Origin: Roseateles oligotrophus
Lineage (GTDB): Bacteria > Pseudomonadota > Gammaproteobacteria > Burkholderiales > Burkholderiaceae_C
Length of the DNA stretch: 64,000 bases
Reading direction: 5' to 3'
Assembly (NCBI RefSeq): GCF_014204525.1
Contig: NZ_JACHLP010000002.1
Span: 1 to 64,000, forward strand
Shown: in pieces, positions 36,831 to 54,008 of the stretch
Numbering within the stretch: the stretch's first letter is position 1
Layout: the number at the start of each line of letters is the position of its first letter
The notes under the pieces: model-generated
Database searches by the model: none
What the model was told of the DNA's origin: nothing
The model's input: the letters and a program-made list of their open reading frames with translations, nothing else
Program-made: the position numbers and the translations under genes

Positions 36831-37697
36831 ATGCAAAACAGTCCCGACCTCCGTCCAGGCCCCGGCCTTGCCGCCGAAAACCGTGCCGCGGCCCTGGCCA
36901 CGCCCGAGCAAGCCGAGGCCTATGCCCGCGACGGTGTCGTGCTCCTGCGCGGCCTGCTGAGCCCGGCCGAGGTCCAGCGCCTGCGCGCCGGCATCGACGC
37001 CAATCTGGCCCGGCCCAGCCCGCGCGCCAAGGTGGCCAGCCCCGGCAGCGACCCCGGCCTCTTCATCGAGGACTTCTGCAACTGGCAGAGCAATGAGGCC
37101 TACCGCGAAATCATCGAAGGCTCGGCCCTGGCCGCCGCCGCCGGCCGCCTGATGCAAAGCCGCCAGGTGCGCCTGTACCACGACCATATGCTGACCAAGG
37201 AGGCCGGCACCCGCCAGCGCACGCCCTGGCATCAGGACCAGCCCTATTACAACGTCGAGGGTCGTCAGAACATCAGCTTCTGGATCCCGGTGGATGCGGT
37301 TTCGCGTGCCGCCACGCTGGAGTTCGTGGCCGGCAGCCATCGCGGCCCCTGGCTGATGCCGCGCAGCTTCATGTCCAGCGAGGCCAAGTGGTTCCCCGAG
37401 GGCAGCCTGGCCGATCTGCCCGACGTGGAGGCCGAGCGCGAGCGCTACGACATCCTTGGCTGGGCCATGGAGCCTGGCGATGTGATCGCTTTCCATATGC
37501 TCACCCTGCATGCTTCGGCCGGCGTCGAGCCCGGCCGCCGCCGCCGGGTGTTCTCGGTTCGCATGCTGGGTGACGATATGCGCCACGCCCCGCGGCCCTG
37601 GACGACCTCCCCGCCCTTCCCCGGCCTGAGCGAGGAACTGGCCGCCGGTGCGGCGCTGGCGCACGCGCTGTTCCCCATCTTGTGGGAGCGCGCTTGA
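36831..37697 (+). CDS. Phytanoyl-CoA dioxygenase (PhyH) family oxygenase
   Basis: A 288-residue 2-oxoglutarate/Fe(II)-dependent oxygenase. The iron site is H-x-D in TPWHQDQPYYN with the distal His in MLTLHASAGVEPGRRRR, the latter arginines binding 2-oxoglutarate. Length and fold order match PhyH proteins. The substrate cannot be deduced; bacterial members hydroxylate diverse small molecules (for example ectoine, or natural-product intermediates). It ends at a strong terminator and precedes an Lrp-type regulator. Confidence 0.85.
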   Translation: MQNSPDLRPGPGLAAENRAAALATPEQAEAYARDGVVLLRGLLSPAEVQRLRAGIDANLARPSPRAKVASPGSDPGLFIEDFCNWQSNEAYREIIEGSALAAAAGRLMQSRQVRLYHDHMLTKEAGTRQRTPWHQDQPYYNVEGRQNISFWIPVDAVSRAATLEFVAGSHRGPWLMPRSFMSSEAKWFPEGSLADLPDVEAERERYDILGWAMEPGDVIAFHMLTLHASAGVEPGRRRRVFSVRMLGDDMRHAPRPWTTSPPFPGLSEELAAGAALAHALFPILWERA

Positions 37698-37725
37698 ATC
37701 TAGCTTGAACTGTTTCGCAAAAGCC

Positions 37726-37758
37726 AAACCCCCAGGCGCTTGTGACGTCTGGGGGTTT
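37726..37758 (+). terminator. Stem-loop terminator after the PhyH gene
   Basis: AAACCCCCAG (37726-37735) pairs perfectly with CTGGGGGTTT (37749-37758) around a 13-base loop. A short T-rich tail follows. It works potentially in both directions. Confidence 0.8.
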
Positions 37759-37894
37759 GTGCTTTGCCGGGGCGCTGGAACTGGCTCGATCTGGTAAGGC
37801 CCGCCCGCAGCCGGCGGAGGTCACCGCCGGCTTGCTGAAACTTGCAGCCGTCCTGTGGCTTGCTGCAGTGAATTCAGTGTAGAGGCCAGGCTCG

Positions 37895-37952
37895 GGCAGA
37901 AAATTGCGAAGATGGCGATGTTTTGAGTAAATTTGGCAGAAAATTGCTCAAA
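37895..37952. promoter_or_regulatory. Lrp/AsnC-type operator upstream of the regulator gene
   Basis: TTTGAGTAAATTT (37922-37934) and AAAATTGCTCAAA (37940-37952) form a near-perfect inverted repeat around a five-base spacer. The 13-mer GGCAGAAAATTGC occurs twice in direct orientation, at 37895-37907 and 37935-37947. AT-rich dyads of this kind are typical Lrp/AsnC sites. Position, 24 bases before the start codon, suggests autoregulation. Confidence 0.75.
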
Positions 37953-37975
37953 CAATCGTTCGTGGAGCAATCTAC

Positions 37976-38449
37976 ATGGAATTGGATCGAATCGACCGGC
38001 AGATTCTCGATGTCCTGCAGCAAGACGGCCGCGTCAATAACCAGGATCTGGCGGACAAGGTCGGCCTCTCGCCCTCGCCCTGCCTGCGCCGGGTACGTGC
38101 GCTGGAGGAGGCCGGCCTGATCGCCGGCTACCGCGCCCTGCTGGATGCAAAAAAACTGGGCCTCTCGCTGATGGCCCTGGTGCATATCTCCATGGATGTG
38201 CACACGCCCGAGCGTTTTGCCAATTTCGAGGCCGCCATCCGCGTGCTGCCCGAGGTGCTGGAATGCCTGCTCATCACCGGCCAGGCGGCCGACTACCAGC
38301 TCAAGATCGTGGTGCGCGATATGGAGCATTTCCAGGCCTTGCTGCTGGGCCGTCTGACCCGCATCGCCGGCGTCACCGGCGTGCATTCCAGCTTTGTGCT
38401 GCAGCATGTGCTGAGCCGCACGGCGCTGCCGCTGGATCTGTCAGCCTGA
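37976..38449 (+). CDS. Lrp/AsnC-family transcriptional regulator
   Basis: A 157-residue regulator. The N-terminal HTH (LDRIDRQILDVLQQDGRVNNQDLADKVGLSPSPCLRRVRALEEAGLI) is typical of Lrp/AsnC, and the C-terminal RAM/AsnC ligand domain spans about 65-150. It is preceded by a strong AT-rich dyad, likely its own operator. The effector is probably an amino acid. The coding end overlaps the convergent PPTase gene by nine bases. Confidence 0.93.
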   Translation: MELDRIDRQILDVLQQDGRVNNQDLADKVGLSPSPCLRRVRALEEAGLIAGYRALLDAKKLGLSLMALVHISMDVHTPERFANFEAAIRVLPEVLECLLITGQAADYQLKIVVRDMEHFQALLLGRLTRIAGVTGVHSSFVLQHVLSRTALPLDLSA

Positions 38450-39010
38450 GCCCTGCCCCGCCGGCAAGGCCAGGCTGCCGACCCAGCCCGGCGGCAGGCG
38501 CAGGGCCTGGCATTGGCAGGCGGCCAGCCAGGCGGGCTCGGCCATGCCGGCCTGCCATTCGCTCAAGCCCCGGCCGTGGAATTTGAGCCGCGCCTCATGC
38601 GCGGCCCAGGCGGGGCCGAAGTCCTGCGGCCGCATCCGGGCGCAGGCCTGCGGGCCCAGATAGTCGCGCGCCACGGCCTGCCAGTCGGGCGGCGCAGCTT
38701 CCTCGCGCAACAGGTCTACGCCCACCGGCCCCAGCAGATTCACCGCAGCCAGCGACAGGCCCGCCTCATGGCTGAAGGAAATGCCGACGCGGTGCCCGAG
38801 CAGCCTGGGCGCGAGACCGGGCCCGGTTTCCAGCGGCAACTCGGCCGCGGCCAGGCCCAGCCGCGGCGCCAGGGCCTCGCGCAAGGCCTGGCGCAGGGCC
38901 AGGCGGGCTTGCGGGCGGGGCAGGGTGGGGGGCAGGGCCAAGGCCAGCACAAAGGCCTTGGCGGCGGGCTCAGGCTGTTGCTGGGGCCAAAGGTAGACCG
39001 GGGCCGGCAT
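38441..39010 (-). CDS. 4'-phosphopantetheinyl transferase (Sfp/AcpT-like)
   Basis: A 189-residue enzyme that transfers 4'-phosphopantetheine from CoA to a carrier-protein serine. The PPTase motifs are GVDLLR (metal-binding Asp) and AWAAHEARLKFHG (the W..(K/H)EA..K signature), with GISFSHEAG as the preceding strand. It is shorter than Sfp (about 225). It starts four bases after the stop of the NRPS-like gene, whose carrier domain is the obvious target. Confidence 0.85.
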   Translation of the reverse strand: MPAPVYLWPQQQPEPAAKAFVLALALPPTLPRPQARLALRQALREALAPRLGLAAAELPLETGPGLAPRLLGHRVGISFSHEAGLSLAAVNLLGPVGVDLLREEAAPPDWQAVARDYLGPQACARMRPQDFGPAWAAHEARLKFHGRGLSEWQAGMAEPAWLAACQCQALRLPPGWVGSLALPAGQGSG

Positions 39011-39014
39011 GGCC

Positions 39015-42000
39015 TCAGGCCCGCTGCGGTGCGGCCGGGCAGCCGCTCCAGGCCGAGCCGGCGGGGATGCTCTCGCCCTTCATCACCAGGGTCATCGGCC
39101 CCAGCTGGGCGCCATCGGCCACGCTGGCGCCGTAGAGCACGGTGCTGCGCGGGCCCACATTGACGCGGGCGCCGATGTGGACGTGGTCTATCTTCATCAC
39201 CCGGTCCTCGAACAAATGGGTTTGCGGGCAGCTCAGGGCATTGAACTCGCTGTAGTCGCCGATGTGTACGCAGTCGAACTCGGTGATGTCAGTGCTGTCC
39301 AGATAGACGCCGCGGCCTATCTTGGCTCCGAGCAGATTGAGCGCTAGCGGCAGCCAGGGCGTGCCGCGCAAGAAGCGCAGGAAGTTGGGCACGGCAATGC
39401 CCTCGTAGAGATTGGTGGCCGCCTCCGACAGCCAGACAAACGGCGTCCACATGGGCACGGCGCGCTGGCGGTAGCGGCCCACCAGCAGCCATTTGAACAA
39501 GGCCACAAAGGCAAAGCCGGCCAAGCCGAAGAGCAGGCCCGCCAGCGCCAGATCCCAGGCCACCAGGGCCCAGCGGCCCTCGCTGGCGGCGGGCATCACG
39601 TCCAGCACCACGGTGTAGCCGGCCGCGATCACGATGGCATGTGGGGCCACGATGCGGAAGCTCTCGATCAGGCCGCGCGCCAGGCGGCGTATCGGCGAGG
39701 GCCGGAAGGTCAGCGACTCCGGGTGGCCCGAGACCGTCTCGCGCGCCGGCAGATGCAGGGGCGGCGTGCCCAGCCAGGTGTCGCCGCTGCGCATCTGCCC
39801 GCCATCGGGCGCGCGGGAGAGCACGCCGATCAGCACGTTCTCCGGGATGGTCGTGCCGTCCGGCACATAAGCGCCGTTGCCGACAAAGCTGCGCCGCGAG
39901 ACCACGGTGGGCCGCATCGTCATCCAGCCGCCGTTGATCTCCTCGTCGCCCAGCAGCACCGCGTCGGCGATAAAGGTCTCGTCGCCCAGGGTCAGCATAT
40001 CGGGCACCACGCCCAGGGCGGTGGAGATCTCGGCGTCGCGCCCCACGCGGGCGCCCAGCAAGCGGTACCACCAGGGCGCGAACACGGTGGCGTAGACGCC
40101 GTGCAGGTTTTGCAGGCTGGACTCTTGAATCTGGTTCACCAGCCATTTGCTGCAGTAGCGCCAGCTGTGCACCGGCCAGCTGCCGCTGACCTGCCGGGGC
40201 AGCACGCCCCAGCGGATGGCGGCCGACAGCAGCGCCGTCGCCACGATCAGGATGGCGCTGGCCGGCAGGGCCAGCAGGAAGTAATGCAGCAGCTGCAGGG
40301 GCACGAAATCACCCTGCAACCAGCCCATGGAGGGCAGCTCGTCCAGGCTGTCCATCAGCATGAAGGTGGGGAAGACGGGCAGGAAGAACAGCGTGGCGAT
40401 CAGCAGCGCGCCGAAGACGAAGAACAGCATCTCCGCCGCCCGGCGGGCGCGGCTGGCGGGCGGGCGCGGGCGCAGGCTGGCGGGGTCGAAGGCGCCGGTA
40501 TCGCGGGCGGGCGAGCCCGCCCAGACGCGCCGGGCCGGCACGCGGCTGCCCTGGCAGAGCGCCGATTGCCCGTCCACATGGGCCCATTCGTCGAGCTGGG
40601 TGTCGCCTTCCAATACCGAGTAGGAGCCCACATAAGCATGGTCCCCGATGGCGATGCGGCCCAGCACCAGCTCGCCCTGCTGCACGCGGGCGTTCTCGAA
40701 GTTCACCGCATTGCCGATGCTGACGCCATGGCCCACGGACAGCAGCTCCGGCGCGCGCAGGGTGATGGAGCCGATATTGACGTCCTCGCCGATGCGTGCG
40801 CCCAGGGCGCGCAGCCACCAGACATAGAGCGAGGAGCCGCTGAAGAAGTAGACCGGCGCCGCCTCCAGCAAGCGGTCCGCCAGCCACCAGCGGTAGTACT
40901 GCAGCCCCCACAGCGGGTAGCGGCCCGGCTTCAGCCGCCCGGCGATCAGCCATTTGCCGGCGATGGCGACGGCGAACTCCAGCACCGTCACGCCCAGGAA
41001 GACCAGCACCGAGATCGCCACGGCGACGGTGATCGAATCCGCCGGGTCGCCGGTGAAGAAGTGGAAGGTGAAGAAGGGCGCCAGCCACTGCGCCATGCGC
41101 AAGGCCACCAGGGGCGGCACGGCCAGGGCCTGGGCGGCGCCGCAGGCCCAGCGCTTCCAGGCCGGCGGCGGCTGCCAGGGGCGAGCGGCCGGCGCGCTGT
41201 CAGCGGCCGAGGCCTGCAGAGTCTCCAGCACGGCGGCGATGGCGCCGACGCGGCGGGCCTTGTACAGCTCGCTCACCGTCAGGCCGGCAAAACGGGCCTG
41301 GGCGCGCAGGGCCGAGGCCAGGCGCGCGGCCAGCAGGGAGTGGCCGCCCAGATCGTTGAAGAAGTCCGCCTCGCGGCGTATGGCCTGGCCGGGGAAGAGG
41401 CGCTTCAAGGCCTCGAACAAGGCGGCTTCGGCCTCGGTCTGCGGCGCGTCGCCGCCATCCTCGGCCTCGGCGACGGCGATCGCTTCCAGAGGCCTGGCCT
41501 TCAGCGTGTTGCGGTCTATCTTGCCCGAGGCCAGCCGCGGCATGGCCGCCAGCCACTCGTAGCGGCCGGGCACCATGTATGGCGGCAGGCTTTGCGACAG
41601 GGCCTGGCGCAGCGTGGCGGCGCTGGGCTGGGCCGAACCATCGCTGACGCAGAAGGCCAGCAGCTGCTCCAGACCTTCGTCGTCACGCCGCAGCAGCACG
41701 GCCGTGGTGCCCACGCCGGGCTGCTGGGCCAGCAAGGCCTCGATCTCGCCCAGTTCGACGCGGAAGCCGCGAATTTTGACCTGGTCATCGACCCGGCCCA
41801 GGCAGTGGATCTGGCCGTTCTCGGCTATGCGGGCCAGATCGCCCGTACGGTAGAGGCGGGCGTCCTGCCCGCCCTCGTGGGCCCAGGGGTTGGCCAAGAA
41901 TTTTTCCGCCGTCAGCTCCGGCCGGCCCAGATAGCCCGCCGCCACGCCGGGCCCGCTGATGCACAGCTCGCCGGTCTCGCCCTGGGGCTGCAGGCGCAGG

Positions 42001-43091
42001 CCCATTTCCACATCGGGCGCAATCACCATCAACTGGTAGTTAGGCAGGGGCCGGCCTATGGTGACGGGCTCGCCCGCCCGCAGCTCGGCCAGGCTGGCCG
42101 AGACCGTGGCCTCGGTGGGCCCGTAGGTGTTGAAGACCTGGCGGCCCGGCCGTGCCCAGCGCGCCACCAGGCTGGGCGGGCACATCTCGCCGCCGAGGTT
42201 GATGAGGCGCAGGCCAGGCACATCGCGCTGGAACAAGGCCAGCAAGGTGGGCACGGCGTGCAGCACGCTAACGCCTTGTGCTATCAGTGCCTGAGGCAGG
42301 GCATCCGGGTCGGCCGCGATCTCGCGCGGTGCCAGCCACAGCGTGGCGCCGACCAGGTAGCTGATCCAGATCTCCTCGAAAGACATATCGAAGGCGACCG
42401 AGAAGCCCTGGTAGACCGTGTCGCTGGCGCGCACGCCCAGCACCTCGTTCTCGCTGCGCAGAAAGTGGCAGATGCTGGCCTGGCTGATGGCAATGCCTTT
42501 GGGCTTGCCGGTGGAGCCCGAGGTGTAGATCACATAGGCCGTGTGCTGAGGACTTGCGCCACTGCGGCGCAGCAAGGGCTGGGTGCTGGGCGCTTGCAAG
42601 TCCTCCGCGGGCCAGATGCGGCGGCCCAGCCCGGGCAGGCGCTCGCGCCAGGCCGCGCAAGTCAGCAGGCCGGTGGCCTCGGCATCATCCAGGCAAATGG
42701 CGACCCGCTCGGCCGGGGTGTCGGCATCAAAAGGCAGCCAGGCCGCGCCGGTCTTGGCGATGGCCAGCTGCATCACGAGCAGGTCCATGCCGCGCGGCAT
42801 CCACAGGCCCAGGATCTGGCCGGGCTTCACGCCAGCAGACATCAGGGCGGAGGCGGCGCGGTCGGCCGCAGCGTCCAGCGCGGCATAGCTGAGCGTTTGA
42901 TCGCCCTGGCGCAGGGCAATCTGCCTGGGCTGGCGCTGCGCCGTGGCCTCAAACACATCGGCCAGCAGCTCGTTGCGCAGCAGCTCGGGGCGCTCGGGGC
43001 CGCGAAGAATCGGGAGATGAAGCTCGGAGGTCAGCAAGGAGGTCAAGGAAGATGGGCTCGGCGGAAGCTGCGAAAAATTCAAAAGCCGCAA
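39015..43091 (-). CDS. Pls/PosA-like single-module NRPS (A-PCP-transmembrane-LbH repeats)
   Basis: A 1,358-residue membrane synthetase. An adenylation domain (about 40-520) has YTSGSTGKPKGI, FNTYGPTEATV, YRTGDLARI and the lysine in GKIDR. A carrier domain follows (Ser in LGGHSLLA, about 582). The C-terminal 700 residues contain several transmembrane helices alternating with three hexapeptide left-handed-helix regions (about 760-870, 1000-1105, 1230-1355). This matches the Pls/PosA family (epsilon-poly-lysine synthetase type) with no condensation or thioesterase domain. Pocket residues read by eye are Asp235, Met236, Glu239 (GrsA numbering), suggesting a basic amino acid. The start is TTG at 43091. 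Confidence 0.85.
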   Translation of the reverse strand: MRLLNFSQLPPSPSSLTSLLTSELHLPILRGPERPELLRNELLADVFEATAQRQPRQIALRQGDQTLSYAALDAAADRAASALMSAGVKPGQILGLWMPRGMDLLVMQLAIAKTGAAWLPFDADTPAERVAICLDDAEATGLLTCAAWRERLPGLGRRIWPAEDLQAPSTQPLLRRSGASPQHTAYVIYTSGSTGKPKGIAISQASICHFLRSENEVLGVRASDTVYQGFSVAFDMSFEEIWISYLVGATLWLAPREIAADPDALPQALIAQGVSVLHAVPTLLALFQRDVPGLRLINLGGEMCPPSLVARWARPGRQVFNTYGPTEATVSASLAELRAGEPVTIGRPLPNYQLMVIAPDVEMGLRLQPQGETGELCISGPGVAAGYLGRPELTAEKFLANPWAHEGGQDARLYRTGDLARIAENGQIHCLGRVDDQVKIRGFRVELGEIEALLAQQPGVGTTAVLLRRDDEGLEQLLAFCVSDGSAQPSAATLRQALSQSLPPYMVPGRYEWLAAMPRLASGKIDRNTLKARPLEAIAVAEAEDGGDAPQTEAEAALFEALKRLFPGQAIRREADFFNDLGGHSLLAARLASALRAQARFAGLTVSELYKARRVGAIAAVLETLQASAADSAPAARPWQPPPAWKRWACGAAQALAVPPLVALRMAQWLAPFFTFHFFTGDPADSITVAVAISVLVFLGVTVLEFAVAIAGKWLIAGRLKPGRYPLWGLQYYRWWLADRLLEAAPVYFFSGSSLYVWWLRALGARIGEDVNIGSITLRAPELLSVGHGVSIGNAVNFENARVQQGELVLGRIAIGDHAYVGSYSVLEGDTQLDEWAHVDGQSALCQGSRVPARRVWAGSPARDTGAFDPASLRPRPPASRARRAAEMLFFVFGALLIATLFFLPVFPTFMLMDSLDELPSMGWLQGDFVPLQLLHYFLLALPASAILIVATALLSAAIRWGVLPRQVSGSWPVHSWRYCSKWLVNQIQESSLQNLHGVYATVFAPWWYRLLGARVGRDAEISTALGVVPDMLTLGDETFIADAVLLGDEEINGGWMTMRPTVVSRRSFVGNGAYVPDGTTIPENVLIGVLSRAPDGGQMRSGDTWLGTPPLHLPARETVSGHPESLTFRPSPIRRLARGLIESFRIVAPHAIVIAAGYTVVLDVMPAASEGRWALVAWDLALAGLLFGLAGFAFVALFKWLLVGRYRQRAVPMWTPFVWLSEAATNLYEGIAVPNFLRFLRGTPWLPLALNLLGAKIGRGVYLDSTDITEFDCVHIGDYSEFNALSCPQTHLFEDRVMKIDHVHIGARVNVGPRSTVLYGASVADGAQLGPMTLVMKGESIPAGSAWSGCPAAPQRA

Positions 43092-43117: not shown

Positions 43118-44521
43118 TCAGGCGCCCAGGAAGCCCAAGTCGCGCTGGCTGAAATTGGCGATCTGCGGCAAGACGCGGGGCAGCTCGCTGCTGCTCACTC
43201 CCATCCAGCTGGCCAGGGTGGCGGCCAGCTGGTCCACCGAGGTCGTGGGCAGCAGGCGGCCCTGGCCCACGTCGTCCGGGCCGCCGGGCGCGGCCGCGGG
43301 CAGCGTGCCGTAGAAGCGGCCGCCCTTGACGGCGCCGCCCAGCAGAAAGTGGTGGCTGCCCCAGCCGTGGTCGGAGCCATCGCCATTGCTGCTCAGCGTG
43401 CGGCCGAAGTCCGAGGCGGTGAAGCTGGTGACCTGTTCGGCCACGCCCAGCTCCACGGTGGCCTCGTAAAAGCTGGCCAGCGCCTCGCTGACGCTGCTCA
43501 GCAGAGCCGGGTGCTGGGTGGGCAGGAAGTCGTGCAGATCAAAGCCGCCGATGGAGACGAAGAAGACCTGCCGGCGAGCCCCCAGGGCATTGCGCGCGGC
43601 GATCAGCTTGGCCACCAACTGCAGCTGGTTGCTCAGGCTGCTGCTGGTGTCAAAGGGCGTGGCCAGTGCGGACAGGCTGGCGAGCGCACCGCTGACGATG
43701 GCTTGCGCGCCCACCGAGCGGCTGACGACGCGGCTCAGCTCCTGCTCCATCCAGTGGCTGCGTTCGGCGGTGATCAGGCTGCGCAAGGCGTCGGCACAGG
43801 CTTGCGAGCCGAATAGCGGCTTGCTGATGCCGTTGATGGCCACCGCACCGCTGCTGGAGAGCTGGTATTGCACCGCCTGCTGGCCCGACATGAAGACCGC
43901 ATTGCCCGACACATTGATGCAGCTGAAGGTGGCGTTACCGTTGGCGGAGAGGAACTGGTCGCCCAGCCGGCCGCCCCAGCCCGAGGTGGCGCCTTCCGGC
44001 AGGCTGGACTGCCAGATGCTTTGCTGGTCGTTGTGGGAGAAGAGCTTGGGCGGCAGCGGCACGCTGGCGGCCTTGTACTGGGCCAGGCTGGTGGGCTGGA
44101 TCAGATTGCCCACATTGAAGAGCACGCTGAGGCGGCCGGCGTCGAACAAGGTCTTGAGCCTGCCCAGCTGCGGGGCCAGGGCCAGCTGCCGGCCATCGGG
44201 CAGGGCGAGGCTGGGCGTCAGCGCGGTGGCGCCGAGCTGATCGCGCGGCGTGGCCAGGGTCTGGCGCATGGCGGCATAACTGGCATAGCTGGCGGTGTCA
44301 TAGGGCACAAAGGTATTGCCGTTGTCATTGCCGCCGTAGAGGAAGACGCAGACCAGGGCCTTGTAGTCGCTGGGCGCCGTGGCGGCGGCCGCTTCGCCGA
44401 TGCCGGCCAGGCTCAGCGCCCAGGGCGCGGCCGTGCCGGCCAGGGCCAGGGCCGAGCTGCGGCGCATGAATTCGCGGCGCTGCATCTGTTGGAGATGGCT
44501 GCTCTTCATGGTGGCCCTCAT
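43118..44521 (-). CDS. DUF1501-family exported protein (Tat signal)
   Basis: A 467-residue protein of the DUF1501 family (sulfatase/alkaline-phosphatase-like). The Tat signal is RREFMRRSSALALAGTAAPWALSLAG. Conserved segments include VFLYGGNDNGNTFVPYD, FSHNDQQSIWQ, GFDLHDF and the C-terminal DHGWGSHHFLLGGAVKGG. The ATG at 44521 overlaps the DUF1800 stop (ATGA), but ATG 44509 has a better ribosome site (GAGGG). DUF1800-DUF1501 pairs are common and uncharacterised, often in exopolysaccharide or Planctomycete-type surroundings. Confidence 0.85.
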   Translation of the reverse strand: MRATMKSSHLQQMQRREFMRRSSALALAGTAAPWALSLAGIGEAAAATAPSDYKALVCVFLYGGNDNGNTFVPYDTASYASYAAMRQTLATPRDQLGATALTPSLALPDGRQLALAPQLGRLKTLFDAGRLSVLFNVGNLIQPTSLAQYKAASVPLPPKLFSHNDQQSIWQSSLPEGATSGWGGRLGDQFLSANGNATFSCINVSGNAVFMSGQQAVQYQLSSSGAVAINGISKPLFGSQACADALRSLITAERSHWMEQELSRVVSRSVGAQAIVSGALASLSALATPFDTSSSLSNQLQLVAKLIAARNALGARRQVFFVSIGGFDLHDFLPTQHPALLSSVSEALASFYEATVELGVAEQVTSFTASDFGRTLSSNGDGSDHGWGSHHFLLGGAVKGGRFYGTLPAAAPGGPDDVGQGRLLPTTSVDQLAATLASWMGVSSSELPRVLPQIANFSQRDLGFLGA

Positions 44522-46221
44522 TTCTGGATCAGGTATTCGGGGCAGGCCATCACCATCAGGATGGCGGCGCAGACCCGGTTGAGCTTGCCCGCATCGCTGC
44601 TCGCATTGATGCTGGCCACGGCCGTGGCGATGCTGGTCAGCGTGCTGCTGGACAAGGTATTGCCGCTGAGGCGCAGAGCCAGGTCGTCGACCAGGGCTTT
44701 GGCGTCGCCGGCCTTGGCCAGCTCGGCGCTGTAGCTGGCCTTGACCTCGCCGACCCCGTTGGCGATGGCTGTTTGCATGAAGTTCAGATAGCCCGCCACC
44801 GTGCTTTCATTGCAGAGCTGGAATTCGGGCGCCGTGATGCCTTGGCTGCCCAGGACCGAGTTGGGCGGCACATAGCCGGGCCTGAAGAAATTGAACACCG
44901 AGGGGCTGCGCAACGGGCTCTGGCCCAGGCGGGTGGCGGGGTTGGAGGTGTCGCCGATATTCCAGAGCTCGGTCGCCGAGCTGGCACCAAAGCTGCGCGC
45001 CCATTGGATGAAGCGCTGCATGGGCTCGCGCAGCTTGCCCGCGCCATTGCCGCTGGGCAGGCTGCGGGCCTCGGCGTCCAGCAAGACGGCCTTGAGCAGC
45101 GCCTTCAGATCGCCCCGCTGGCCGGCGCCGTTGTCGTTGAACACGCTGGCCACCCGCTGCACATAGGCGGGGCTGGGGTTGGAGCAGACCAGGCGCTGGA
45201 TCAATTGCCGCCCGAAGAAGGGGCCGACATTGGGGTGATTGGCCAAGGTGTCCAGCACGAGCTTCATCGCCTGCGGGCCGCTGAGGCTGGCCGCTATGGA
45301 CACGTCCAACACCTTTTTGTCGCCGCTGGAAAACTTGGCGGCGTTGTGCACCATGGGCTTGCGCATAAAGCTCGGGTCGGTGGCGCTGGCGTCGTCAAAG
45401 TCCCAGCCGGTGAAGACGCGGGCCAACTCGGTGATGTTCGTCTGGGTATAGGTTTCCTTGGGCTTGCCCTGGCCGTCCAGCACCGGGCTGCCGTCGAGCT
45501 TCAGCTCGATCAGGCCGATGGTGAACAGCTGCATCAGCTCGCGGGCGTAGTTTTCATCGGGCAGCCGGCCGGTCTTGGCATCCTCCTTTTGGTTGCCGCG
45601 CAGATTCAGGTAGACGCCCATGCCGCAGGACAGGGTGACGCCCTCCAGCAGATCGCGGAAGCTGCCGAAGCAGCGCTGCTCCAGCATGTCCACATAGGCC
45701 GCCACGGCCATGCCGCGCCAGGCCACCGGCAGGCCGGCCATGGAGATGACGAAGATCTCGCTCAAGGCCAGCACCAGGCGTTGGCGCAGGCCGTCGGGCG
45801 CGCTGATCAGCTTGCGCCACAAGCTGCTGTCCACCCCGGCGAAGTTATTGCGGTAGTCCAGCGCGCCATAGCCCTTGGCCAGCATCCAGTCGAAGTGCGG
45901 GCTGCTCACCGGCAAGGCCATCTGCGCGTCCAGCCAGGCGGCATAACCCTGAGTCTTGACTGTGGCCATATCCGCGGCGGTGGCGGCAAAGCCGGCCTGG
46001 GCCAGAAAGCGGCAGGCCTCCGCATCGCTGGGGCTGGGCGGCGGCGGCGTGGGTGCTGGTGTGGGCGCGGGTGCTGGGTCCGTTGAACCGCCGCCGCCGC
46101 CACCTCCACCGCAGGCGCTCATCAGCAAGCTGGTGCTGGCGAGGGCGGCCGTTAGCAGCTGGGGGCCCGGCTGCTGCGGCAGTGCGGGGGGCGGGCATTC
46201 AAGTGCTGCGATCTTCTGCAT
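44518..46221 (-). CDS. DUF1800-family lipoprotein
   Basis: A 567-residue protein, the common partner of DUF1501. Its lipobox is LLMSAC (Cys37) followed by Gly, Pro and Thr-rich linker sequence. Typical DUF1800 motifs are RFLAQAGFAAT, RKLISAPDGLRQRLVLALSEIFV, ENYARELMQLFTIGL and FFGRQLIQRLV. Function unknown; possibly a secreted helical partner of the DUF1501 enzyme. It overlaps the DUF1501 gene by four bases, so the pair forms an operon that continues towards the NRPS gene after a 26-base gap. Confidence 0.85.
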   Translation of the reverse strand: MQKIAALECPPPALPQQPGPQLLTAALASTSLLMSACGGGGGGGGSTDPAPAPTPAPTPPPPSPSDAEACRFLAQAGFAATAADMATVKTQGYAAWLDAQMALPVSSPHFDWMLAKGYGALDYRNNFAGVDSSLWRKLISAPDGLRQRLVLALSEIFVISMAGLPVAWRGMAVAAYVDMLEQRCFGSFRDLLEGVTLSCGMGVYLNLRGNQKEDAKTGRLPDENYARELMQLFTIGLIELKLDGSPVLDGQGKPKETYTQTNITELARVFTGWDFDDASATDPSFMRKPMVHNAAKFSSGDKKVLDVSIAASLSGPQAMKLVLDTLANHPNVGPFFGRQLIQRLVCSNPSPAYVQRVASVFNDNGAGQRGDLKALLKAVLLDAEARSLPSGNGAGKLREPMQRFIQWARSFGASSATELWNIGDTSNPATRLGQSPLRSPSVFNFFRPGYVPPNSVLGSQGITAPEFQLCNESTVAGYLNFMQTAIANGVGEVKASYSAELAKAGDAKALVDDLALRLSGNTLSSSTLTSIATAVASINASSDAGKLNRVCAAILMVMACPEYLIQK

Positions 46222-48823: not shown

Positions 48824-49834
48824 TCACGCTGGCCAGTACAGCTTCCGCATCGGGATCAATCGCTGCATGTCAATGTCCATGCGTTCGTACTGTTCAAGCA
48901 GAGCCTTGACCAGATCATCCAGGTCCATCAAGGTGACAGGAATGCGGGCTCGTTCCGCCTCGTAGCGGGCGTCTTTGGTAAAGCCGCCCGTGCTGACGTA
49001 CAGACCCTTGTCGTTGTCATGTCGGCCGCCAAGGAAGCTGCGGATCTCCTGTGATCCCATCGCGGCGGTGCGATGTTTGACCTCCACCACGATGCGTGGA
49101 TCTTCAAAGCCGAGGCCATCAGGCGAAGCAACGATGTCCTTGCCCCGATCCGATCCGCTGGGAGAAATCCGCGTCTTGTAACCCATCGCACGCAGCAAAC
49201 CCGCCACGAGTTCCTGCATGTCCTCCCAGTCGAGCTGGCTGACCTTGTCCTTGATGAACTCGAAAGCCTTGCCCTGAATGTCCTTGTACAAGTCATCGAC
49301 CTGATCTTCAGCATCTGGCGCTGCTGGCGTCGAAACCACGGCTTGTGCCGCCCCACTCAAGAGACGCTCAATTTCGGCGGCAGCTTCTACCGGCACCATG
49401 AACAAGGTGGAGATCGCCCCCAGGCTGTTGCGCGTGGCGACTGACAAGTTGTCCCGCATCACTCGCCCGATCCATCGGACCTTGCGTTGATTCGGCTGCT
49501 CTGCAGAAGCAGTTGGGGCGTATTCGTAGGCCCCCTCCACCACACCCACCAGATAGCTGCGTTGTGGCGGGCTGTAGGTCAACACCGAATCACCGACCTT
49601 GATTTCCCGGACAAAACGAAACACCTGCCCTGCCGAGCTGGGGTAGGTAGATGGCTTGGCTTTGGGGTAGGAAATCTCCACCTGCCGCATGAAAGCATCT
49701 CGCCCCTGCAGCGCAGTGAGATCGCCCATTTCATCCCAACCGATGCTGACGATGCTCTCGCGCTCGAATTCATCAAAGCGCCAGCCGGCTTCACCGGCTC
49801 GCACCATCCACATGGTTTTGTTATTGCTTGTCAT
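48824..49834 (-). CDS. Mrr-type restriction endonuclease with EVE-like N-terminus
   Basis: A 336-residue nuclease. The C-terminal Mrr_cat fold has the PD-(D/E)xK core GSDRGKDIVAS ... RIVVEVKH, followed by QEIRSFLGG. The N-terminal 110 residues (WRFDEFERESIVSIGWDEMGDL..., FVREIKVGDSVLTYSPPQRSYLVGVVEGAYEYAP) look like an EVE/PUA-like modified-base reader, as also seen in MrcB-type proteins. This arrangement suggests a modification-dependent (type IV-like) enzyme. It is the last gene of the hsd-linked operon, five bases after the Ymh gene. Confidence 0.8.
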   Translation of the reverse strand: MTSNNKTMWMVRAGEAGWRFDEFERESIVSIGWDEMGDLTALQGRDAFMRQVEISYPKAKPSTYPSSAGQVFRFVREIKVGDSVLTYSPPQRSYLVGVVEGAYEYAPTASAEQPNQRKVRWIGRVMRDNLSVATRNSLGAISTLFMVPVEAAAEIERLLSGAAQAVVSTPAAPDAEDQVDDLYKDIQGKAFEFIKDKVSQLDWEDMQELVAGLLRAMGYKTRISPSGSDRGKDIVASPDGLGFEDPRIVVEVKHRTAAMGSQEIRSFLGGRHDNDKGLYVSTGGFTKDARYEAERARIPVTLMDLDDLVKALLEQYERMDIDMQRLIPMRKLYWPA

Positions 49835-49839
49835 TGGCT

Positions 49840-50727
49840 CTATGTTCTCTTGTACTTTGGCTTTGCCGGCGCTGCGTCTTCGTCTGGTTCTGTCGGTTGA
49901 GGCCGGTCGATGGCCGAGCGTTCCAGCGTATAGAGCAGATTGAGCAGCATGAACTCCTGCAGCGCCGAGACGTCTCGACCTTCGGTCATTCCGTGCGCGC
50001 GTGGGTTGCGAAACGCCCCGTAGGCACCCGTGAACAACTGGCTGCGGGCATTGTGTTCGCCGGCCGATACCTTCTTCCAGGTCAGCTTGGATCGATCGCC
50101 GACGAATGCGGTGACAAAGGCTCGGCCCTCACCCACTTCCTGGCCTAAGCGCGCCCGTACCAGGTCTTCAAGCTGGCGAAAGCCGACCATCAGCGCGTGG
50201 TCCGGATTGTTCTCAAAACCCAGGGCTGCTTGCACCAGATGGCCGTCAAGCACTCCCCATGGCATCAGCTCGGGCAAACGCCTGATGGGAGCGACCGGAC
50301 CATCGTCGTGGCGAGGGTTCGGCAACAAGTAGCCGTACCAACGTCGAGGTCGCACGGGTTCAGCCTTTTCAATGTCATCCAGATCACCCTGGGTCAACGC
50401 TGAGTCGTCGAGTCGCTCGATCAGCACCGCCTTCACCTCGATCTCTTCAACGTCGACGTCGAAGGCTTCCAGCAAGTGCAGCGTGGCTGAGAGCGTGCTC
50501 GGGCCTTCACCAGGGTAGCCAGAGCGAAACCCAGACTTCACCGCGACGGTGCCCAGTGACTCCTCTTGCAAAAGCAGTGCATGAGTCTGCCCTGCCGTCA
50601 ACAGCATGACCTGCTCGATCTGGGTCCCAGTAATCAGCAGACGCTCCACCGCTTGCATGCAACTCTTGGACACGCCCGCCAGCCCCATGTACTGGATTCC
50701 AGCGGGCCGATTCCTGTCCAGCATCAT
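49840..50727 (-). CDS. Ymh-family protein (TIGR02391-like) with HEPN-type motif
   Basis: A 295-residue protein. Residues about 165-275 match the Ymh family (VQAALGFENNPDHALMVGFRQLEDLVR..., LFTGAYGAFRNPRAHGM). The RNPRAH string fits the R-x4-H active-site pattern of HEPN nucleases, so RNase activity is possible. The N-terminal 150 residues are unassigned. ATG 50727 overlaps the hsdR stop by four bases, coupling it to the restriction operon. A guard or abortive-infection role is inference. Confidence 0.72.
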   Translation of the reverse strand: MMLDRNRPAGIQYMGLAGVSKSCMQAVERLLITGTQIEQVMLLTAGQTHALLLQEESLGTVAVKSGFRSGYPGEGPSTLSATLHLLEAFDVDVEEIEVKAVLIERLDDSALTQGDLDDIEKAEPVRPRRWYGYLLPNPRHDDGPVAPIRRLPELMPWGVLDGHLVQAALGFENNPDHALMVGFRQLEDLVRARLGQEVGEGRAFVTAFVGDRSKLTWKKVSAGEHNARSQLFTGAYGAFRNPRAHGMTEGRDVSALQEFMLLNLLYTLERSAIDRPQPTEPDEDAAPAKPKYKRT

Positions 50728-53700
50728 GCGGCCCACTTTCTGCCTCGCAGCGCGTACTCAACGGCCAAGTCATAGACCTTGTCGCACTTTTGTTTGAAGG
50801 TGCTGCGGTCGTAGCTTTGGGGCAGATCGTCGTTCAACACCCGCTCGATCTCCCCGCGAACCTGCTGCTGCGTTTGCGTGTTGTGGTGCCAGTTCTGCAC
50901 CAGCACCTTGGGTTGCTCCTCGACCAGGCGTTGCAGCAAGTGCTTGGCCGCCAGCTTGACGCGCTGCGTCTCGTCTTGCGTGAGCGGGTCTTTCTTGAGC
51001 AGGTCAAACAGCTCCAGCTCGTCTTCGCTGAGCCCTTCTCGGATGTGCCGCTCGGCTTCTTGCTGCAATTCCTGCGCGAAGGTGGTCAGCTCGTCGAAGT
51101 AGTTCTCGGTGGCCGTGGCGCCCGAGTTGTAGGCATCGATCACGTTTTGCAGGCGCTGCAGGAAGTCGGCCCGCGTGCTGTTCTGTGCCAGCATCTCGGC
51201 CAGTTTGCGCTGCAAGAAGGCTTGTAAGTCGGCGATCTGAATGTTCTTGTAGGGCGCGTTCTTGAACTCATCGCGCAGCTTGTCCACATTGACCGTGCTC
51301 AGGTTCCAGGCCTTGCCGCGCTGCACGATCTTGTATTGCGCCTCGAACTCCTTGGCCGAGAAGGTCTCGGCCTTGTCCACCACCACGCTGGCATCCAGCA
51401 AGGCCTCGATCTTGTGCACCGCGCTGTCGATGTCGGTCCCTTCGACGATGCCTTCCATCACTCCGCGCAGGTACTGGAAGGCCGACACCACCCGTCCCTT
51501 GCCGAGCCTCAGCACCTCGGGCTTGCAGGCCTCGTAAAGCGAGGAGATGGTGTTCTCGTAGACGTTGAAGGACTTGCGCTGCTCCTCACTGGCGAGCAGC
51601 GTGTTGGCAAACTCGTTGAACTGGCCCAGCTTGGTGAACACATCGCCACGATCCAGCGCCTCGTGCAGGGGCACATCCTGGCTTTGGCAAAACGCAAAGC
51701 CTTGCTCGATCGCCTCGTCCAGCAGCGCAAACAGCTGGCTCTTGTCCTGCACCGGCAGCTCTTCATCCTCCGGCCCCGCGGCATAGTCGCGCAGCGCCTT
51801 CTTCATGCGGCGGAAGACGTTGTAGTAGTCCACGATCTCGCCGTGGCGCTTGCTCACACCGTGGACCTCATACCCGCTCACCCGGTTGGCCCGCGCGATG
51901 GTCTGCATCAGCGTGTGGCCCTGCATGGGCTTGTCCAGGTAGAGCGTACTCACCGTGGGCGCGTCAAAGCCGGTCAACCACATCGCGCAGACGAACACCA
52001 GCTGCAGCGGATGCTCCGGGTCCTTGAAGTTGAACTCGATGTCGTGGCCGTGCTCGTCCAGCGCATTCATGCGCTGGCGGTGCGGCTTGATGTCCAGCTT
52101 CTTCTTGGCGAACTTCTCTTCCTCGCCCGCCTCCTCGCTGACGATCACCGCCATCTGCACCGTGCTCATCCAGGCCTTGAGTTGCTTCAGACGCTGGCGT
52201 TCCACATCGTTCTGGGTGCTGCTGATGCGGCCGTTCAGCGTCTTGATCTCGGCCTTCCACAGTGCTTGGACCTTGTCGTGCATGGTCACGGCCGTGAACT
52301 TGTCCACCGAGATGACGAGGCCCTTGCCCAGGTAGCCGCGGCGAGGGAAATGGAAAACGATGTCGCGCGCAATCGTGTCCAGCCTGTCCTCGCGCTTGAC
52401 GACCTCCATCTCCTGCGCGAAACGCTTCTCCAGCTTCTCCTGCGCCTTCTCGTCCAGGTTCTCCTCTTCCAGGATCTGGGCAAACTCCTCGCTCAGGTCC
52501 TCGTTCTGGATCAGCACCTCGGGCACGCGCTTCTCGTAAAACAGCGGCACCGTGGCACCGTCTTCCACGCTCTGCTGGAAGTTGTATTCCGAGACGTAAT
52601 CGCCAAACCAGGCATTGGTCTTGCGTGCCTTGCCCAGCAGCGGCGTGCCGGTGAAGGCCAGGAAGTTGGCCCGCGGCAGGCCGGCGCGTAGGTTCTCGGC
52701 CAGGCCGGCGTACTGCGTGCGGTGCGCTTCGTCCACGATGACGGCGATGTCGTCCCGGTCGGACAGCAGCGGGTAGTCGCGGCCCTTGGCATAGCGGAAC
52801 TTCTGGATCAGCGTGAACACCACGCGCTTGTTCTTGCCCAGCATCTCGCGCAGCTGGGCGCTGTCGCGCGGGCGCACATCGTCCTTGGGCGCCACCACGC
52901 CGGTGTGCAGGAAGTTGCGGTAGATCTGCCCGTCCAGATCGTCCCGGTCGGTCACCACCACAAAGGTGAAATTGCCGGTGAGCTTGCGAAAAATCTTGCG
53001 GGTGTAGAACACCATCGAAAAGCTCTTGCCCGAGCCCTGCGTGTGCCAGAACACACCCAGCTTGCCGCCCAGCTCGTGCCGGCGCGTGAACTGCTCGAAG
53101 GCATTGTTCACGCCCAGGAACTGGTGGTTCTGCGCGATGACCTTCTGCGTCTCGCGGTAGAACACACAGAAGTTCTCCACATAGTCCAGCAGCCGCTCGG
53201 GCTTGAGCAAGCCCAGCACCGCCCGCTCCACGCTCAGGCCCCCGGCGGCGATGGCCTTGCGGTCCAGTTGCTCCTTTTCGTCATCCACCCGCAGCCAGTT
53301 GAAGAAGTGCTCCCACTGCGCGCTGAGGCTGCCCAGCTTGGTCTCGATGCCATTGCTCAGCAAGCAGATCGCGTTGGCGGTGAACAGCTGCGGGATCTCG
53401 GCCTTGTACGTGGTGAGGTTGTCGTCAAAGGCCGCGCGCAGCTTGACATTGCTGTTCTTCAGCTCGATGAACACCAAGGGCAGGCCGTTCACATACAGCA
53501 GCACATCGGGCCGGCGGTAGCCATGCTCGCCGCGAATCCAGAGCTGGCTCACGGCCAGGTAGTGGTTGCGGCCAGCGGCCGGGGCGGGGGTGTCGAAATC
53601 GATCACCCGCAGCCGCTCGGCCACCGTCTGCCCGGCCTGCGGCCCGCTCTTGGGCTTGTAGGTGACGGGCACGCCGTCGCGGATCAGCCCGTCCATCTCC

Positions 53701-54008
53701 CGGTTGGCCGCCACCAGGCTCATGGCCGTGCGCGGCAGCAGCAGCTGGGCCATGGCCTGGTCCAGCGCATGGGCCGGGGCCTGTGGGTTCAGCCGCTCCA
53801 GCGCGGTGCGCAGCCGCTCGGCCAGGATCACCTCACGCTTATCGCTGCGGCCCGAGCCGTCGTTCAGATCATCGGCCTGGGCCGTGAAGCAGTTCAGCGC
53901 ATCGAAGCCGCACAAGTGCTGCAGCCGCTGCACCAGGGCCTGCTCGATCTCGTCTTCGCTGATGAAGATCCTGGCTTTGTTGTTGCTATTGCTCTTCGCT
54001 GCGGCCAC
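50724..54008 (-). CDS. hsdR: Type I restriction endonuclease subunit HsdR
   Basis: A 1,094-residue motor-nuclease subunit. The N-terminal nuclease has YRRPDVLLYVNGLPLVFIELKN (D...ExK). SF2 motifs follow: Walker A QGSGKSFSM (about 326), DEAHRTQY (about 423), FTGTPL as motif III. The C-terminal helical region mediates assembly with HsdM/HsdS. It translocates DNA and cleaves far from the recognition site when the site is unmodified. The ATG at 54008 is 68 bases after the hsdS stop. Length is normal for the family. Confidence 0.95.
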   Translation of the reverse strand: MAAAKSNSNNKARIFISEDEIEQALVQRLQHLCGFDALNCFTAQADDLNDGSGRSDKREVILAERLRTALERLNPQAPAHALDQAMAQLLLPRTAMSLVAANREMDGLIRDGVPVTYKPKSGPQAGQTVAERLRVIDFDTPAPAAGRNHYLAVSQLWIRGEHGYRRPDVLLYVNGLPLVFIELKNSNVKLRAAFDDNLTTYKAEIPQLFTANAICLLSNGIETKLGSLSAQWEHFFNWLRVDDEKEQLDRKAIAAGGLSVERAVLGLLKPERLLDYVENFCVFYRETQKVIAQNHQFLGVNNAFEQFTRRHELGGKLGVFWHTQGSGKSFSMVFYTRKIFRKLTGNFTFVVVTDRDDLDGQIYRNFLHTGVVAPKDDVRPRDSAQLREMLGKNKRVVFTLIQKFRYAKGRDYPLLSDRDDIAVIVDEAHRTQYAGLAENLRAGLPRANFLAFTGTPLLGKARKTNAWFGDYVSEYNFQQSVEDGATVPLFYEKRVPEVLIQNEDLSEEFAQILEEENLDEKAQEKLEKRFAQEMEVVKREDRLDTIARDIVFHFPRRGYLGKGLVISVDKFTAVTMHDKVQALWKAEIKTLNGRISSTQNDVERQRLKQLKAWMSTVQMAVIVSEEAGEEEKFAKKKLDIKPHRQRMNALDEHGHDIEFNFKDPEHPLQLVFVCAMWLTGFDAPTVSTLYLDKPMQGHTLMQTIARANRVSGYEVHGVSKRHGEIVDYYNVFRRMKKALRDYAAGPEDEELPVQDKSQLFALLDEAIEQGFAFCQSQDVPLHEALDRGDVFTKLGQFNEFANTLLASEEQRKSFNVYENTISSLYEACKPEVLRLGKGRVVSAFQYLRGVMEGIVEGTDIDSAVHKIEALLDASVVVDKAETFSAKEFEAQYKIVQRGKAWNLSTVNVDKLRDEFKNAPYKNIQIADLQAFLQRKLAEMLAQNSTRADFLQRLQNVIDAYNSGATATENYFDELTTFAQELQQEAERHIREGLSEDELELFDLLKKDPLTQDETQRVKLAAKHLLQRLVEEQPKVLVQNWHHNTQTQQQVRGEIERVLNDDLPQSYDRSTFKQKCDKVYDLAVEYALRGRKWAA

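What the first reader, a model, noticed from the sequence alone, without database searches (positions are those of the whole stretch)
38441..43091. Pls/PosA-like NRPS with dedicated PPTase: candidate poly-amino-acid synthetase
One adenylation domain, one carrier domain, no condensation or thioesterase domain, and a C-terminal half of alternating membrane segments and hexapeptide helices match the epsilon-poly-lysine synthetase type. The A-domain pocket read by eye starts Asp235-Met236-Glu239, and an acidic residue at 239 is typical of basic substrates such as ornithine or lysine. A PPTase gene follows four bases later. The product may be a cationic homopolymer or an aminoacylated surface compound.
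Basis: partly seen in the sequence, partly recalled or inferred. Interest (0 to 1): 0.72.

Follow-up and report, generated by a model that had tools for sequence, protein, structure and literature searches.

The report
Poly-ornithine synthetase with PPTase partner
The stretch holds what looks like an intact member of the enzyme family that strings ornithine into a positively charged polymer, and beside it a small gene that probably switches the enzyme on; the family is already known, while the partner gene kept beside it in many relatives is a modest new detail.

Summary
[quoted passage not shown] It scores 807.5 bits against NCBI's Pls/PosA model, cut-off 423.1. Its A domain is closest, among solved structures, to PosA, the characterised delta-poly-L-ornithine synthetase (541.7 bits). 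Its ten pocket residues, DMEHNGTVSK, equal PosA's published code. [quoted passage not shown] the product is inferred, not shown.

The 189-aa neighbour is a diverged Sfp-type PPTase. A homologue lies just downstream on the same strand in 49 of 80 named loci (29 lack it, 2 end too early). No other gene family recurs as widely. All three Acinetobacter loci lack it.

A confident model of the carrier plus C-terminal half (pLDDT 92.2) shows three fused beta-helix repeats resembling trimeric O-acetyltransferases. The motif QTHLFEDR, exact in 98 of 99 homologues and cut off in the other, lies only in repeat 3: a candidate catalytic site.

New member of a known kind; interest fairly low.

The parts
39015..43091 (-). 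Pls/PosA-family NRPS-like homopolymer synthetase (A-PCP-terminal membrane domain), 1358 aa; start codon uncertain by about 15 codons
   Evidence: TIGR02353 807.5 bits vs cut-off 423.1; Pfam domains; homologues
41520..42959 (-). Adenylation domain (about residues 45-524); pocket D235 M236 E239 H278 N298 G300 T322 V330 S331 K524 = DMEHNGTVSK
   Evidence: Pfam AMP-binding; alignment to PosA A domain 8g95; pocket read-out
41229..41393 (-). Peptidyl carrier domain (residues 567-621), phosphopantetheine site Ser585 in DLGGHS
   Evidence: Pfam PP-binding E 4.7e-5; Ser585 in 99 of 99 aligned rows
39033..41135 (-). C-terminal polymerisation domain (residues 653-1353): three pairs of membrane helices and three left-handed beta-helix repeats
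   Evidence: TIGR02353 stretch; AlphaFold2 model pLDDT 92.2; internal repeats by hhalign; fold matches
39201..39224 (-). QTHLFEDR motif (residues 1290-1297), candidate catalytic centre with His1292; only in repeat 3
   Evidence: Exact in 98 of 99 aligned rows, the other (L123) being cut off by its contig end; the His column is Ala801 in repeat 1 and Glu1050 in repeat 2
38441..39010 (-). Sfp-type 4'-phosphopantetheinyl transferase, diverged; starts 4 bases after the synthetase stop
   Evidence: HetI model 1e-4, below its cut-off; 3 of 7 related proteins pass Pfam ACPS, best 2e-8; profile hits AASDHPPT 4.9e-9 and Sfp 3.5e-6; D99, W135, E139, K143 invariant in 15 of 15

Best explanation
The two genes form a small operon for a cationic isopeptide homopolymer, most likely delta-poly-L-ornithine. 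Proposed mechanism: the PPTase primes Ser585 of the carrier domain with phosphopantetheine. The A domain activates L-ornithine as its adenylate and loads it on the carrier as a thioester. The membrane-embedded C-terminal domain then joins the carboxylate of one residue to the side-chain amine of the next, repeatedly, and the chain leaves without a thioesterase domain. His1292 in the third beta-helix repeat is the likeliest general base. Shown here: domain content, pocket identity, PPTase membership, linkage, predicted fold and motif conservation. Inferred: cotranscription, substrate, product, which PPTase acts, catalytic residue, release and biological role.
For: TIGR02353 807.5 bits, cut-off 423.1. 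A domain 541.7 bits to PosA, the best of 7 sequences listed at E 1e-100; epsilon-poly-L-lysine synthetase 7wew scores 265.3 bits in the full-length search. Pocket DMEHNGTVSK identical at 10 of 10 positions to the PosA code printed in PMC10522769, where mutating the first Asp or the Glu left no detectable activity. Of 99 aligned rows, 83 have the same code, 15 differ at one or two positions and 1 has a DFE code. PPTase homologue downstream on the same strand in 49 of 80 named loci, and the most recurrent neighbour by far (58 of 104 loci, next 15). Model with pLDDT 92.2 and pTM 0.91, matching hexapeptide O-acetyltransferases.
Against: No product has been measured. In the full-length PDB search, two-module linear gramicidin synthase, scored over two modules, edges PosA (540.1 vs 539.3 bits). 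A pocket code predicts activation only: the PosA A domain activated lysine weakly, yet no lysine polymer was found. The three Acinetobacter loci retrieved here read DMEHNGTVTK, one residue off the printed code. 29 of 80 named loci lack the linked PPTase, so it is not indispensable. The genome has two other PPTases, one about 4.6 kb from another NRPS. Likeness to an acetyltransferase fold does not prove acyl transfer.
Confidence: 0.8

Rival explanations
1. The enzyme makes a homopolymer of another diamino acid (lysine, 2,4-diaminobutyrate, D-ornithine) or of mixed residues.
For: PosA also takes D-ornithine at about half the catalytic efficiency, and lysine about 160-fold less well. A-domain codes are imperfect predictors.
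Against: PMC10522769 assigns Ala at the Met position to lysine enzymes and Phe to diaminopropionate/diaminobutyrate enzymes; here it is Met, as in PosA.
Confidence: 0.13
2. It is an aminoacyl transferase that puts single amino acids on a surface acceptor, not a polymerase.
For: A-PCP plus an acyltransferase-like fold without a condensation domain could in principle serve that.
Against: The C-terminal domain matches the polymer-synthetase family far above cut-off; apart from the PPTase and its shadow no gene family recurs in more than 15 of 104 loci (these were not identified).
Confidence: 0.04
3. The linked small gene does not serve the synthetase; it is a degenerate or unrelated PPTase that is merely co-inherited.
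For: Diverged: no Pfam hit for the window protein, and the second acidic residue of Sfp's metal-binding DxE is not acidic in 15 of 15 (the Sfp residue is recalled). 29 of 80 named loci lack it.
Against: D99, W135, E139 and K143 are invariant in 15 of 15. Same-strand linkage is seen in Burkholderiales, Neisseriales, Pseudomonas and Verrucomicrobia-type loci.
Confidence: 0.15

Closest known systems
PosA, delta-poly-L-ornithine synthetase of Acinetobacter baumannii (Patel and Gulick 2023, PMC10522769; A domain 8G95-8G98)
   Same: Same A-PCP-membrane-domain layout, identical printed pocket code, A domains align over the whole core (541.7 bits)
   [quoted passage not shown] here a PPTase gene follows four bases later. 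The window enzyme lies in a 63-row clade without Acinetobacter (support 98, quick tree)
Epsilon-poly-L-lysine synthetase (Pls) of Streptomyces (A domain 7WEW)
   Same: Same family and domain order (PMC10522769)
   Different: A-domain match only 265.3 bits; Ala instead of Met at the chain-length position
Hexapeptide O-acetyltransferases (galactoside and maltose acetyltransferase, CysE)
   Different: Three repeats fused in one membrane-bound chain; a carrier-bound aminoacyl donor is expected in place of acetyl-CoA (inferred)

Membership tests
Pls/PosA homopolymer synthetases (TIGR02353) | C-terminal NRPS_term_dom above curated cut-off | tested here: met
   807.5 bits vs 423.1 over profile 2-695 of 695
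Pls/PosA homopolymer synthetases (TIGR02353) | One A and one PCP domain; no condensation or thioesterase domain | tested here: met
   Pfam listing at E 0.05
Pls/PosA homopolymer synthetases (TIGR02353) | Three pairs of membrane helices alternating with three related soluble segments | tested here: met
   Three long-helix pairs in the model; five of the six pass KD 1.6, the first (about 644-678) does not, and one A-domain segment also passes; repeats align with E 7e-27, 6.6e-23 and 1.2e-15
delta-poly-L-ornithine synthetases (PosA type) | Pocket code DMEHNGTVSK | tested here: met
   10 of 10 positions
delta-poly-L-ornithine synthetases (PosA type) | Activates L-ornithine and makes delta-linked oligomer | not testable with these tools
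   Needs enzyme assay
Sfp-type PPTases | Profile similarity to PPTases | tested here: met
   Profile of 15 aligned proteins, window included: AASDHPPT 4.9e-9, Sfp 3.5e-6
Sfp-type PPTases | Pfam ACPS above gathering score | tested here: not met
   Window protein: none, 14.1 bits vs 25. Of the 7 related proteins scanned, 3 pass (L064, L065, L069), 3 hit below cut-off and 1 has no hit
Sfp-type PPTases | Catalytic Asp, Glu and Lys (GVD...WxxxEAxxK) | tested here: met
   D99, E139 and K143 in 15 of 15; the second acidic residue of DxE is not kept in any of the 15 (Sfp roles recalled)

The most novel reading that the evidence does not exclude
The synthetase and its PPTase form a self-contained two-gene cassette for delta-poly-ornithine that has moved between Betaproteobacteria, Pseudomonas and perhaps Verrucomicrobia, with a PPTase specialised for this one carrier domain; polymerisation takes place at a single pseudo-trimeric hexapeptide active site built around His1292.
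Probability: 0.35. Interest if true: 0.5.

Novelty: new member of a known kind. Interest (0 to 1): 0.3.

Why it matters
PMC10522769 states that before PosA no such polymer had been reported from bacteria other than Actinomycetes. A Paucibacter-type relative with a built-in priming enzyme would be a convenient system for asking how the polymerisation domain works and what such polymers do for Gram-negative bacteria. The His1292 site and the PPTase dependence are directly testable.

Tried and rejected
Neighbours as pathway genes: in the 27 loci compared (20 kb or less each), the PhyH dioxygenase (36831-37697) and the DUF1501/DUF1800 pair matched none, and the Lrp-type gene matched 5 of the 11 same-genus loci at varying distance (4 of the 11 are short or end early), plus a partial 71-residue match in L074; none is included. 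No solved structure of the C-terminal domain is found by sequence (best E 1.7e-4, to a gamma carbonic anhydrase-like subunit). phmmer of repeat 3 gave only weak hits, and in the four alignments shown His1292 is not matched to a catalytic His of a known acetyltransferase, so that role stays inference. Distances in the model could not be measured because its coordinates are not in the Python box. Paper searches for a synthetase-PPTase link turned up none; listings and abstract starts were seen, passages of PMC10522769, PMC8117764 and PMC4361855, not all texts; most subscription papers are not held. PMC5920192 passages speak of antimicrobial activity in a Paucibacter strain without naming this gene. 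A notebook entry called the repeat-2 residue at the His1292 column variable; a recount shows Glu or Asp in 98 of 99 rows.

Full report
What is there. One search lists two abutting reverse-strand ORFs: 39015-43091 (1358 aa, TTG start) and 38441-39010 (189 aa, ATG start), four bases apart. The first matches NCBI model TIGR02353, 'Pls/PosA family non-ribosomal peptide synthetase', at 807.5 bits against a cut-off of 423.1. Pfam, listed to E 0.05, gives one AMP-binding domain, its C-terminal subdomain, one carrier domain and a hexapeptide stretch, and lists no condensation or thioesterase domain. In the window's genome 1 of 5 matches to the model is over the cut-off, this one.

Substrate. Searched alone, the A-domain core is closest to PosA of Acinetobacter baumannii among solved structures (8g95, 541.7 bits; linear gramicidin synthase, the next molecule, 381.8). 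In the full-length search linear gramicidin synthase, scored over two modules, stands at 540.1 bits, PosA at 539.3 and epsilon-poly-L-lysine synthetase 7wew at 265.3. PMC10522769 was read in parts 1-5 of 8 and by passage search. It gives the PosA pocket as DMEHNGTVSK, reports no detectable activity after mutating the first Asp or the Glu, and argues that Met sets substrate length. The window pocket is the same at all ten positions. Of 99 aligned rows (window and 98 loci with open frames over 1200 residues), 83 share the code, 15 differ by one or two positions, and one reads DFECNGTASK. The three Acinetobacter loci among them read DMEHNGTVTK, one position off the published code.

The small gene. 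Pfam gives nothing for the window protein, and ACPS scores 14.1 bits against 25; the HetI hit (21.7 bits) is far below its cut-off of 370. Seven related proteins were scanned: three pass the ACPS cut-off, three hit below it, one has no hit. A profile of 15 aligned proteins hits human AASDHPPT (4.9e-9) and Sfp (3.5e-6) in the PDB. Asp99, Trp135, Glu139 and Lys143 are invariant in 15 of 15. It is therefore a diverged, probably active Sfp-type PPTase. Two other matches over the ACPS cut-off exist in the genome, one on contig 7 about 4.6 kb from a separate NRPS.

Linkage. A homologue of the PPTase ends within 1.5 kb downstream on the same strand in 49 of 80; 29 of 80 lack it there and 2 of 80 end too early. 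Two of the 29 (L104, L148) have it 1.5-1.9 kb further on. Lacking are 3 of 3 Acinetobacter, 4 of 6 Undibacterium (one more ends too early), 2 of 3 Achromobacter, 2 of 5 Pseudomonas and others. Nine of 9 same-genus loci among the 24 have it; two more same-genus loci (L058, L062) end inside the synthetase and were not counted. Clustering of ORFs of 110 residues or more within 6 kb in the 104 loci found this family in 58; the next largest, apart from its own opposite-strand shadow, is in 15 and was not identified. A FastTree of 88 rows, with linkage counted out to about 2.7 kb, places three Pseudomonas species that carry the pair inside a well-supported group of Massilia, Duganella and Janthinobacterium, which suggests horizontal transfer, and needs 15 changes of the linked/unlinked state. 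The program warns of long branches in this quick tree, and the count does not tell gain from loss.

Distribution. The family is patchy: 17 of 300 genomes drawn from the order (16 over cut-off), 9 of 369 from the class (8 over cut-off), and in the same genus 12 of 18 genomes with a match of 64% identity or more, three of them incomplete; each count includes the window's own genome. The protein search by the C-terminal region scored 7994 candidates and found 4600 at E 0.001 or better; in the 120 listed, the nearest named ones are Paucibacter and Roseateles, and many of the named ones are called Pls/PosA family.

Known status. Synthetases of this type are a described class. [quoted passage not shown] What the held library did not show is a report of the linked PPTase; PMC10522769 describes a single-gene operon. 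The finding is thus a correct reading of a new member of a known kind, with a partner gene kept in many relatives as the modest addition.

Noticed in passing
36831-38449 (+): PhyH-family dioxygenase (36831-37697, Pfam 6.7e-23) and an Lrp-type regulator (37976-38449) that overlaps the PPTase end by 9 bases, convergent. The dioxygenase matched none of 27 loci; the Lrp gene matched 5 of 11 same-genus loci.
   Followed up: partly
43118-46221 (-): DUF1501 and DUF1800 proteins in tandem, the first ending 26 bases before the synthetase ORF on the same strand; neither matched any of 27 homologous loci.
   Followed up: partly
L076 (G227:C1:1144226-1146327): A synthetase C-terminal domain split over two reading frames in one genome of the order, with a PPTase still downstream; described only.
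   Followed up: no
48824-54008 (-): Long ORF (50724-54008) that reads like a type I restriction enzyme R subunit, with a restriction-endonuclease-like ORF at 48824-49834; judged by eye from the translations.
   Followed up: no
L075: More distant homologue (38% identity) with pocket DFECNGTASK; Phe at the length position is what the PosA paper gives for shorter diamino acids. It also has a linked PPTase.
   Followed up: no
window residue Glu1050 (39942-39944, -): Repeat 2 keeps an acidic residue (Glu or Asp in 98 of 99) at the position that His1292 holds in repeat 3; its role is unknown.
   Followed up: no
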